Shown: positions 10-35,572 of the stretch, piece by piece
How positions within the stretch are numbered: the first letter of the stretch is position 1
Layout of the letters: each line of letters opens with the position of its first letter
Assembly: GCA_025352995.1 (NCBI GenBank)
Contig: JANXRN010000080.1
Coordinates: 1-35,572 of the forward strand
DNA length: 35,572 nucleotides
Direction of reading: 5' to 3'
Origin: Acetobacteraceae bacterium
GTDB taxonomy: Bacteria; Pseudomonadota; Alphaproteobacteria; Acetobacterales; Acetobacteraceae
Translations under genes and position numbers: made by a program
The notes under the pieces: model-generated
The model's input: the letters and a program-made list of their open reading frames with translations, nothing else
What the model was told of the DNA's origin: nothing
The model's database searches: none

Positions 10-33
10 CTTCTTTTTGTTCACAAAAAGAAG
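10..33. repeat. Terminal hairpin (H1) of the dispersed AT-rich repeat family; rest of element lies outside the window
   Basis: CTTCTTTTTGT-TC-ACAAAAAGAAG, 11-bp perfect arms, preceded by GTTTTTTTG exactly as in the right ends at 31717-31740 and 34088-34111. Confidence 0.85.
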
Positions 34-22062: not shown

Positions 22063-22165
22063 GCGATTCTTCTTTTTGTGAACAAAAAGAAGCAAAAAAA
22101 CTTTCCTACGTTACTGCCTGGCCGTTGGGTTGGGAATTCTCACAATTTATTAACAAATCGAAACA

Positions 22166-22197
22166 AATAAGGCGCAAAAAGCCCCAAACGCCTTATT
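22166..22197 (-). terminator. Putative intrinsic terminator overlapping the stop codon of the element ORF
   Basis: 9-bp perfect arms AATAAGGCG / CGCCTTATT, 14-nt loop; minus-strand reading continues into TGTTTCGATTTG. Confidence 0.5.
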
Positions 22198-22732
22198 GCC
22201 ATTCCAGCCTACCGGTCGGGCCGACGATCATCTTCGCCTGCTTCACCGCTTCCACCCATGCCGGCGGAGGCCAAACCACCTCCCGCTGCACCTTCGCGGC
22301 GATCTTTCCAGCCGGCACGAACAGCATTCGCGCCAACACGCCCACAATCTTCCGCGCCTGCGGAACCTCGGCAAGGAACCGCGCGCACTCCTCCTGACTG
22401 ACCATCAACTGCCAATCGCCCAGCTTCTGATGAATGTCCGGCATCCGCGCCGCCAGCCAGCCATGTCCCTCGGGGAAGCTGATCTTCGGCGAGCGCACCC
22501 GGTCCTTGCGCTTGCCCTTCTCGGAATCCTGCGCCCGTGGCGCCGGCAGAGTGCCCGCCCGCCACTGCGCGATAAGCCGCTCCAACCGCCGCCCCATGCG
22601 CCCGACGCGATTCCACAGCTCCCGGAAGAAGTCCGGCTTGCTCTGGTCGCGCAGCGACAGCACGCCAATGGCGGCCTGCAGCAACGTGAAGAAGGGAAGG
22701 AATGAAACCATGGGCCGACCATACATGTTCAT
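22193..22732 (-). CDS. Hypothetical basic protein carried inside the inverted-repeat-bounded element
   Basis: ORF track 209 aa; start moved to MNMYGRPMVSFLPFF because the longer form begins with GTG inside the terminal hairpin; no family recognised. Confidence 0.55.
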   Translation of the reverse strand: MNMYGRPMVSFLPFFTLLQAAIGVLSLRDQSKPDFFRELWNRVGRMGRRLERLIAQWRAGTLPAPRAQDSEKGKRKDRVRSPKISFPEGHGWLAARMPDIHQKLGDWQLMVSQEECARFLAEVPQARKIVGVLARMLFVPAGKIAAKVQREVVWPPPAWVEAVKQAKMIVGPTGRLEWQ

Positions 22733-22885
22733 GATATGTTCCGTCAAGCTTTTTTCATGAGTTCCCGACCCAACGGGTAGGCAGTGCCGTCGGAAAAAGT
22801 TTTTTTGGTTCTTTTTGTTCACAAAAAGAACTTCTTGCCTTCTGACTTCTCTTGCCTGGGAGCCTTTCTAAACAAAGAAGCCCCT

Positions 22886-28533: not shown

Positions 28534-28610
28534 CGGAGTGTAGCTCAGCCTGGTAGAGCACTGGTCTCGGGGTCCAGGGGCCGGAGGTTCGAATCCTCTC
28601 ACTCCGACCA
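28534..28610 (+). tRNA. tRNA-Pro (anticodon CGG), with encoded CCA
   Basis: CGGAGTGTAGCTCAGCCTGGTAGAGCACTGGTCTCGGGGTCCAGGGGCCGGAGGTTCGAATCCTCTCACTCCGACCA; cloverleaf with loop CTCGGGG. Confidence 0.92.
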
Positions 28611-28654
28611 ATTTCCCGTGTTATTGACGTGATAGGTAGTATAAGAAGAAAGCA

Positions 28655-28790
28655 GTTCTTTTTGTGAACAAAAAGAACCAAAAAAACTTTTTATCCATTC
28701 CTGGCCGTTGGCGTGCGCCCTCCGCAACCGCCAAGCGCTCGGAACCAAAGTGGAAAAGTTTTTTTGCTTCTTTTTGTGAACAAAAAGAAG
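28655..28790 (-). repeat. Short (~136 bp) hairpin-ended dispersed repeat, opposite orientation to 31607-31740
   Basis: Ends GTTCTTTTTGTGAACAAAAAGAAC and CTTCTTTTTGTGAACAAAAAGAAG; reverse complement reads ...CAAAAAAACTTTTCCACTTTGGTTCC...GCCAACGGCCAGGAATGGATAAAAAGTTTTTTTG..., matching the other copies. Confidence 0.88.
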
Positions 28791-31606: not shown

Positions 31607-31740
31607 CTTCTTTTTTGAAAAAAAGAAGCAAAAAACTTTTCCACTTTGGTTCCCTGCGCGCGGGAACCGGATGAGTTCCCAACCCAACGGGCAGGAATGG
31701 ATAAAAAGTTTTTTTGCTTCTTTTTGTTCACAAAAAGAAG
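31607..31740 (+). repeat. Short (~134 bp) hairpin-ended dispersed repeat inside the ugpB-ugpA intergenic gap
   Basis: CTTCTTTTTT-GA-AAAAAAGAAG ... CAAAAAACTTTTCCACTTTGGTTCCCTGCGCGCGGGAACC...GAGTTCCCAACCCAACGGGCAGGAATGGATAAAAAGTTTTTTTG ... CTTCTTTTTGTTCACAAAAAGAAG. Confidence 0.9.
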
Positions 31741-33975: not shown

Positions 33976-34111
33976 GTTCTTTTTGTGAACAAAGAGAACC
34001 AAAAAAACTTTTTCACACTTGGTACGGTTGCCGAGGGACTGCGGTAAGTTCCTGCGCCAACGGCCAGGAACGGACAAAGTTTTTTTGCTTCTTTTTGTTC
34101 ACAAAAAGAAG
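33976..34111 (+). repeat. Short (~136 bp) hairpin-ended dispersed repeat between apt and the ATP-grasp-like gene
   Basis: GTTCTTTTTGTGAACAAAGAGAACCAAAAAAACTTTTTCACACTTGG...GCCAACGGCCAGGAACGGACAAAGTTTTTTTGCTTCTTTTTGTTCACAAAAAGAAG; same orientation as 31607-31740. Confidence 0.9.
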
Positions 34112-34161: not shown

Positions 34162-35385
34162 ATGAACCAAATCTCGCCCCCAGTTTCCTTCGTCACCCTC
34201 GCCATGCAACACGCCGAGCGCGGCGAATGGGCCATCGCCCGGGCCTTGCTGGAATATGCCGAGGCAGTTCCCCGCGATCGCCATGTGGCGCGGTTTCTGT
34301 TGTGGGAAGTATGCCAGGCGCTCGGCGATGCAGGTGCCGGCGTCGCCTATTTGCGTGCCGCGATTGCCGAAGCGCCACTGACCTTCCGGCAAGCAGCGAC
34401 ACCGCAACGGCGGCTGCTGGTGGTGAATACGCCGGGCGATTTTCAGGCGAATTTGCCGGTGGCGCTGTTGCTGGATGAGGCAACGACCGATCTGCACACG
34501 CTTTGGCTGGACGACATCGCAGACGCGCCGACGAATTTGCCAGACATTGACTGCGTTTTCATCGCCATCGCCCAGGACCATCGGCACGACGCCGCGTTGC
34601 GGGCGGCAGGTGCGTTGGCCGCGCGCATCGGCAAGCCCGTGATCAACCCAGCCCATCGCATTGCCGCAACAGGCCGCGATGCGGCAGCGGTTTTGCTGCG
34701 TGACGTGCCTGATGCGATTGTACCGCCGCAAATCCTGCTCGGGCGTGCGGCGCTCGCCGACAAGATCGCATTTCCCGCGATCATCCGGCCACGCCATTCG
34801 CATGCCGGCACGGGCCTGGCACGGATTGGAAACCACAACGATCTGCTGCGCTATCTGGCGGACTATCCTGGTGACGACGAATTCTTCACGGCGCCATTCA
34901 TCGACTACCGCAGCGCCGATGGATTATGGCGAAAGTTCCGCGTGGTGTTTGTCGATGGCACGCCGATGCCGTTCCACATGGCAATCCATGATGATTGGGC
35001 AGTGTGGTACTACAACGCCGGGATGGATCGCGATGCTGGCAAGCGCGCGGAAGAAGCGGCTTTCCTCGCCGACATCAGCGCCGTCTTTCCGCCTTGTGCG
35101 ATCCGTGCACTAGAAGAAATTGCGGCCCGCATCGGCCTCGATTATTTCGGCCTGGATTGCGGCCTCATGTCGGATGGGACGTTGGTGGTGTTCGAGGTGG
35201 AAACCGGAATGATCGTGCATGATCGGCCAGAAGGCGACGTGTTTGCCTATCGTCAGGCACCGGCCAGGCGGATTCTGACCGCGGTTGCCGCCATGATCGA
35301 TGCGCGCATAGACCTTGCTAGTGGTGCGATCCTAACGCTCACTACCCGAGCGTTAGGTGATCCGTTCCACCAAATCAAAGGCTAG
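34162..35385 (+). CDS. Protein with N-terminal TPR-like segment and ATP-grasp-like C-terminal region, function unknown
   Basis: 407 aa; helical N-term (HAERGEWAIARALLEYAEAVPRDRHVARFLLWEVCQALGDAGAGVAYLRAAI); AFPAIIRPRHSHAGTGLARI, KFRVVFVDGTPMPFHMAI, LDYFGLDCGLMSDGTLVVFEVETGMIVHD resembles RimK/ATP-grasp motifs. Confidence 0.65.
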   Translation: MNQISPPVSFVTLAMQHAERGEWAIARALLEYAEAVPRDRHVARFLLWEVCQALGDAGAGVAYLRAAIAEAPLTFRQAATPQRRLLVVNTPGDFQANLPVALLLDEATTDLHTLWLDDIADAPTNLPDIDCVFIAIAQDHRHDAALRAAGALAARIGKPVINPAHRIAATGRDAAAVLLRDVPDAIVPPQILLGRAALADKIAFPAIIRPRHSHAGTGLARIGNHNDLLRYLADYPGDDEFFTAPFIDYRSADGLWRKFRVVFVDGTPMPFHMAIHDDWAVWYYNAGMDRDAGKRAEEAAFLADISAVFPPCAIRALEEIAARIGLDYFGLDCGLMSDGTLVVFEVETGMIVHDRPEGDVFAYRQAPARRILTAVAAMIDARIDLASGAILTLTTRALGDPFHQIKG

Positions 35386-35429
35386 TGGATAGAATCTGAC
35401 GGCTCTTTCCGTCAGATTCTATCCACTAG
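35382..35429. terminator. Perfect 21-bp inverted repeat with 6-nt loop between convergent ORFs; probable bidirectional terminator or repeat
   Basis: CTAGTGGATAGAATCTGACGG-ctcttt-CCGTCAGATTCTATCCACTAG. Confidence 0.75.
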
Positions 35430-35572
35430 GCGCTGAAACTGCGCATGCCCTGCTCAGCCCGCATTGGCGGCCGAACGGCCACGATCGGGGTGCGCAATCC
35501 ATCGGCCAGATTGCGATTAACCTCAATCAATGGCTGCAAACTCGCATCATTGGTCATCGCTGCCACGCTGTA
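35426..35572 (-). CDS. C-terminal part of a CDS running off the window
   Basis: Minus-strand frame open from the window edge to TAG at 35426-35428: ...YSVAAMTNDASLQPLIEVNRNLADGLRTPIVAVRPPMRAEQGMRSFSA*. Confidence 0.45.
   Translation of the reverse strand, partial: YSVAAMTNDASLQPLIEVNRNLADGLRTPIVAVRPPMRAEQGMRSFSA

What the first reader, a model, noticed from the sequence alone, without database searches (positions are those of the whole stretch)
22069..22831. Inverted-repeat-bounded unit carrying one unrecognised ORF: candidate long form of an undescribed element family
Two ~70-bp imperfect inverted repeats face each other around a single 180-209 aa basic ORF (…GRPMVSFLPFFTLLQAAIGVLSLRDQSKPDFFRELWNRVGRMGRRLERLIAQWRAGTLP…MIVGPTGRLEWQ) with its own putative terminator. 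The outer 22-24 bp hairpins and CAAAAAAACTTT tracts are the same as on the three short ORF-less copies elsewhere in the window, which resembles an autonomous/passenger element versus MITE relationship. The ORF has no recognisable transposase motif (no HUH, DDE or RAYT signature that I can see), so it could be a novel mobility protein, a passenger, or a repeat-binding protein. Both ends here carry the GAGTTCCCNACCCAACGG subterminal box, while short copies have it at only one end, so the short copies are not simple internal deletions of this unit.
Basis: partly seen in the sequence, partly recalled or inferred. Interest (0 to 1): 0.78.

Follow-up and report, generated by a model that had tools for sequence, protein, structure and literature searches.

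The report
Hairpin-ended mobile gene unit, unknown protein
This is a real 0.76-kb gene unit with hairpin ends that has been copied to many places in an uncultured acetic-acid-family bacterium, carrying a gene from an undescribed protein family with about 50 functional-looking copies per genome and no recognisable relatives, which would matter because neither what moves it nor what the protein does is known.

Summary
At 22070-22830, 72-bp inverted arms (86% matching), each ending in a 24-bp hairpin, enclose one minus-strand ORF (22193-22711, 172 aa). At least nine such units (758-790 bp, 65-78% alike) sit at unrelated loci in this genome; their similarity runs hairpin to hairpin and fades about 0-20 bp outside. 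Three sister species have 4 bp between the flanking genes where the window has 823 bp, so this is an insertion. The ORF belongs to an undescribed family: about 50-60 copies per genome in this genus, found in 13 of 56 genera sampled, almost all intact, dN/dS about 0.2-0.3, pI about 11-12, with no Pfam, NCBIfam, PHROG, PADLOC, PDB or fold match. Each genus copy has a leaderless-type promoter and a near-palindromic DNA box 25 +/- 2 nt after the stop. The 585 hairpins mostly occur without the ORF, as uniform short elements that also show empty sites. No RAYT-type transposase was found in this genome, and the protein lacks conserved catalytic residues, so 'autonomous' is unsupported. Best reading: a non-autonomous, hairpin-ended element carrying a selected gene for a basic, probably nucleic-acid-binding protein, moved by an unidentified enzyme.

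The parts
22070..22830 (.). whole unit, outer hairpin to outer hairpin (761 bp)
   Evidence: nine two-armed copies in the genome align hairpin to hairpin and lose similarity about 0-20 bp outside; orthologous site empty in three sister species
22070..22139 (+). left arm (3' side of the ORF): hairpin 22069-22092, A-run, subterminal box 22122-22139
22149..22166 (-). conserved near-palindromic 3' DNA box (here TTGTTTCGATTTGTTAAT), about 25 nt after the stop codon in paralogs
   Evidence: genome-wide pattern hits fall almost only behind ORF copies; 54 of 54 genus copies at 23-27 nt; no covariation
22193..22711 (-). ORF, 172 aa, basic, predicted helical protein of an undescribed family
22712..22747 (-). 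leaderless-type promoter: TTGACG at 22742-22747 and TATGGT at 22718-22723, directly before the ATG
   Evidence: same layout in paralogs and other genera
22759..22830 (+). right arm (5' side of the ORF): subterminal box 22759-22776, T-run, hairpin 22808-22831
28656..28789 (.). short ORF-less copy, directly downstream of a tRNA gene; absent in G003 and G004
31607..31739 (.). short ORF-less copy between two genes of an ABC-transporter operon; absent in G001, G003, G004
33977..34110 (.). short ORF-less copy
11..32 (+). lone hairpin at the contig start (partner not in the assembly)

Best explanation
The unit is a non-autonomous, hairpin-ended mobile element that carries one selected gene. Shown: it is bounded by the hairpin arms, recurs at unrelated sites, and is absent at the orthologous site in three sister species; the gene is under purifying selection and is inherited together with a promoter and a 3' DNA box. 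Inferred: an unidentified enzyme acting in trans recognises the hairpin arms and moves both the short ORF-less copies and this long form; the protein (pI about 11, helical) binds nucleic acid, most likely its own 3' box or the hairpins, and regulates or assists the element or serves the host rather than catalysing transposition.
For: At least 16 near-full-length relatives in the genome; nine two-armed units of 758-790 bp with shared limits; near-identical copies in broken contigs share sequence out to the hairpin. Empty sites: this unit in G001/G003/G004, two more units in G004, two short copies. Two copies sit at the swapped ends of a rearrangement. dN/dS 0.17-0.27 among the closest G000 pairs. 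Box at fixed spacing and nearly exclusive to the ORF. Outward hairpin 3' of 34 of 54 copies against 1 inward; background 0.12 per kb. Among 56 genera, the 7 with more than 60 hairpins all carry the ORF family (p = 7e-6). No catalytic signature.
Against: No target-site duplication is visible, so the insertion chemistry is unknown. In sister species most copies have one arm or none, and some copies are old and syntenic (L057/L065; L058 with G001). Hairpins occur in 10 genera where no ORF was found, and ORFs in 4 genera without hairpins. No candidate trans-acting enzyme was identified. Nucleic-acid binding rests on charge and context only.
Confidence: 0.55

Rival explanations
1. Independent host gene family: the ORF family is an ordinary, selected paralogous family that spreads by duplication; hairpin elements merely share its intergenic sites and sometimes carried a copy along as a passenger.
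For: Family present where no hairpins were found (G014, G031, G045); old syntenic copies without a 5' arm; at one locus G001 carries a different family member without hairpins where G000 has a two-armed unit and G004 is empty.
Against: Outward orientation and near-constant spacing of hairpins in most G000 copies; genus-level co-occurrence; shared unit limits.
Confidence: 0.3
2. The ORF encodes a transposase or recombinase of a chemistry not seen before, so the long form is autonomous.
For: It is the only gene in every long form examined; the lineage with most hairpins also expanded the two-armed ORF group; purifying selection; no Y1_Tnp in G000.
Against: Near-invariant residues include no Tyr, Ser, His or Asp and only E44 and E108, not enough for DDE, HUH, serine or tyrosine chemistry as known; some 50-60 divergent, individually conserved copies is unlike a transposase family.
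Confidence: 0.1
3. The hairpins are just transcription terminators and the unit is a fixed gene between two of them.
For: They lie between genes and can form hairpins.
Against: A/T-rich stem without a 3' U-run; long arms beyond the hairpin conserved; clean empty sites in sister species, one inside an operon.
Confidence: 0.03

Closest known systems
REPIN/REP with RAYT (TnpA-REP) systems (PMC3116915, PMC3733652)
   Same: Hundreds of intergenic palindromes, often as inverted pairs, with an associated gene near them; copies move within the genome.
   Different: No Y1_Tnp protein in G000, G003 or G004; here the associated gene has about 50-60 divergent copies, whereas PMC3116915 describes RAYTs as single-copy entities; the protein shows no HUH signature.
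MITEs and MITE-like elements carrying passenger genes
   Same: Short, non-coding, inverted-repeat elements plus longer copies with a gene between the same kind of arms; empty sites.
   Different: No parent transposase known; no target duplication seen; the carried gene has its own conserved promoter and 3' box and exists independently of the arms.
Tyrosine transposase genes flanked by long TIRs ('TIRYT', PMC3733652)
   Same: One gene between long terminal inverted repeats that belong to a repeat family.
   Different: The gene there is a tyrosine transposase; here there is no such motif.

Membership tests
REPIN/RAYT | Y1_Tnp (HUH) transposase gene in the genome | tested here: not met
   PF01797 search: 0 in G000, G003, G004; weak single hits in G001 and G002
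REPIN/RAYT | repetitive extragenic palindromes, often as inverted pairs | tested here: met
   585 palindromes; paired short copies
REPIN/RAYT | GTAG or CGTC tail on the palindrome | tested here: not met
   the arms read in full show neither tag next to the palindrome
MITE | short non-coding unit with terminal inverted repeats, high copy, dispersed | tested here: met
   uniform short copies with 69-71-bp cores; two with empty sites
MITE | target-site duplication | tested here: inconclusive
   none visible at the junctions read; intergenic sequence diverged
MITE | ends shared with an autonomous transposase-bearing element | tested here: inconclusive
   no such element among the matches examined, but the genome was not scanned exhaustively
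Insertion sequence (autonomous) | encodes a recognisable transposase | tested here: not met
   no Pfam, NCBIfam, PHROG, PADLOC or PDB-sequence match; no catalytic residue set; no fold match
Phage or plasmid cargo | relatives on phages or plasmids | tested here: not met
   no match in phages, plasmids or viral contigs

The most novel reading that the evidence does not exclude
The protein family is the dedicated, RAYT-independent partner of a hairpin repeat family: each dispersed gene carries its own binding box, and the proteins recognise hairpins or boxes and drive or control repeat spread by an undescribed mechanism.
Probability: 0.2. Interest if true: 0.88.

Novelty: new variant of a known kind. 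Interest (0 to 1): 0.66.

Why it matters
A selected gene family of about 50 divergent intact copies per genome, invisible to current family libraries, with a rigid promoter-gene-box layout and in one lineage packaged between mobile hairpin arms, is unusual. It makes two open questions testable: how high-copy palindromic repeats spread without a RAYT, and whether a protein without known transposase chemistry can be the partner of a repeat family. Its copies also supply homology for genome rearrangement.

Tried and rejected
Known families: none in Pfam, NCBIfam, PHROGs, PADLOC or PDB sequences. Fold search of the whole model (mean pLDDT 81) and of the 59-residue C-terminal helical part: nothing better than E 1.9, and nothing at all for the part; this does not exclude a distant fold, since the whole model has a floppy linker and no library of cellular predicted structures was on hand. 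RNA stem at the 3' box: rejected, symmetric positions do not covary (20 Watson-Crick pairs at the variable position against 24 expected); this corrects an early notebook entry. Rfam: only a tRNA in the stretch searched. Coding read-through into the box: rejected, the spacing of 23-27 nt covers all frames and an in-frame stop follows in L039. Phage or plasmid origin: no match. Literature searches found REP and MITE comparators but nothing on this family. The first genome-contig query failed for lack of conserved stretches.

Full report
Observation. The unit at 22070-22830 is real. Arms 22070-22139 and 22759-22830 are inverted repeats (72 columns, 86% identity), their outer 35 bp 97% complementary. 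The palindrome occurs 8 times in the window against none in shuffles and the subterminal box is at both ends. The genome (4.5 Mb, 558 contigs) holds 585 palindromes, 0 for the control pattern.

What recurs. A DNA search with the unit found at least 16 near-full-length relatives (69-78%) plus many arm matches in the same genome. Nine copies, the window's included, have both arms: they are 758-790 bp long and 65-78% identical in pairs, with alignments running hairpin to hairpin and ending mostly 0-20 bp outside. Two pairs of closely similar copies, split across contigs at a 141-base identical stretch, remain alike out to the outer hairpin and then differ (flanks). These facts make the hairpin-to-hairpin stretch the duplicated unit.

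Insertion. In G001, G003 and G004 (same genus) the neighbours of the window's unit, a cytochrome c gene and a convergent phosphatidylserine-synthase-like gene, are 73-82% identical to the window's and have 4 bp between their stop codons; the window has 823 bp. Units L055 and L044 also have empty counterparts in G004 (gaps of about 22 and 56 bp). Short copies at 28656-28789 and 31607-31739 are absent in two and three sister species. No target duplication was seen. A deletion in all three relatives is possible but less economical. Two copies (L039, L042) have flanks that are reciprocally exchanged relative to G001 and G004, as expected if recombination between copies rearranged the genome; this is inference.

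The ORF family. A profile search gives 56 matches in this genome and 42-59 in the sister species, 38 and 58 in two other genera (capped near 59). Among the copies listed, internal stops are rare. dN/dS for the closest pairs is mostly 0.2-0.4 (up to 0.9 for one G024 pair), and 0.20 and 0.23 for the window's copy against its nearest relatives. So the protein has been selected over the history of most copies. By together it was found in 13 of 56 genera sampled in the family and in none of 40 genomes from other families of the class; two of the 13 rest on single matches, and one of these (G018) was not confirmed by the profile. Named records place relatives in metagenome-assembled genomes labelled Acetobacteraceae, Asaia or Rhodospirillales.

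Gene layout. In this genus and others a TTGACA/G box lies about 34-39 nt before the ATG in most copies where it is exact, so transcription should start at or near the ATG; this is read from sequence, not measured. A box with consensus TGCGnCTTATTTGTTACGATATCGnAATTAA follows the stop by 23-27 nt in all 54 genus copies for which it was scored, and in none of the control stretches. Genome-wide it is found almost only behind ORF copies. Its symmetric positions do not covary, so a DNA site is likelier than an RNA stem. The layout is recognisable in other genera, G024 above all, but degenerate or absent in some.

Link to hairpins. Within 300 bp of the stop, 34 of 54 genus copies have an outward-facing hairpin and 1 an inward one; background is 0.12 per kb. 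On the 5' side, 10 of 22 G000 copies have an outward hairpin at 103-108 nt, none of the 32 copies scored in sister species. Two-armed packaging therefore looks like a development in the G000 lineage, which also has 456 pattern-exact hairpins against 62-106 in its sisters. Across 56 genera the seven with more than 60 hairpins all have the ORF family (p = 7e-6), but association of mere presence is weaker (9 of 13 against 10 of 43, p = 0.006), the threshold of 60 was chosen after seeing the counts, and shared ancestry is not corrected for. The short copies are uniform, with a 69-71-bp core between two unlike arms (6 of 6 found), while long forms have two arms of one type, so short copies are not deletions of this unit.

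What the protein is. AlphaFold2 with 45 sequences gives a mostly helical model (mean pLDDT 81): helices 5-21 and 26-52, a basic linker, helices 85-130 and a C-terminal strand pair. No structural match was found. The pI is 10.9 for this copy and about 11.4-12.0 for the genomes computed. Near-invariant residues are mainly Arg, Leu, Pro, Trp, Glu44, Glu108 and Cys109. This argues against a known transposase chemistry and for a nucleic-acid-binding or structural role, which remains inference.

RAYT test. The Y1_Tnp family is absent from G000, G003 and G004, so the REPIN/RAYT mechanism (PMC3116915) does not account for the 585 hairpins here by that family; a divergent or unassembled enzyme cannot be excluded.

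Limits. The assembly is fragmented, identical recent copies would be lost in it, and copy counts are lower bounds. Sister genomes are about 80% identical at the window locus, so timing is coarse. Only part of the genome could be read. Literature coverage is open-access only.

Noticed in passing
window 35375-35436; also flanks of L056 and L042: A second inverted-repeat family (CTAGTGGATAGAATCTGACGG ... CCGTCAGATTCTATCCACTAG); in L056 it is inserted into the 3' arm of an ORF unit, a nested insertion.
   Followed up: partly
L039 and L042 (G000:C48, G000:C538) against G001 and G004: Flanks of two ORF units are reciprocally exchanged relative to sister species, suggesting a rearrangement by recombination between copies.
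   Followed up: partly
L152:about 796-1496 (G001:C38): At the site where G000 has unit L055 and G004 has nothing, G001 carries a very different family member without hairpins: the same intergenic site was hit twice or its content replaced.
   Followed up: partly
G000:C73, C281, C352, C246, C501 and others: A further subgroup of the family with open frames of about 183-300 aa and the 3' box further from the matched region; at least one (C246) has arms on both sides.
   Followed up: no
L177:about 540-700 (G000:C163): Tandem repeats of a GC-rich unit containing CGCCAACGG next to the 3' end of an ORF copy.
   Followed up: no
sister-species copies such as L059, L061, L097: Another dispersed repeat, roughly GATGGATTGCTTCGCAAGGGTTCGCAATGACG, between the 3' box and the hairpin.
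   Followed up: no
window 28534-28656: A short hairpin element lies directly downstream of a tRNA gene and is absent there in G003 and G004.
   Followed up: yes
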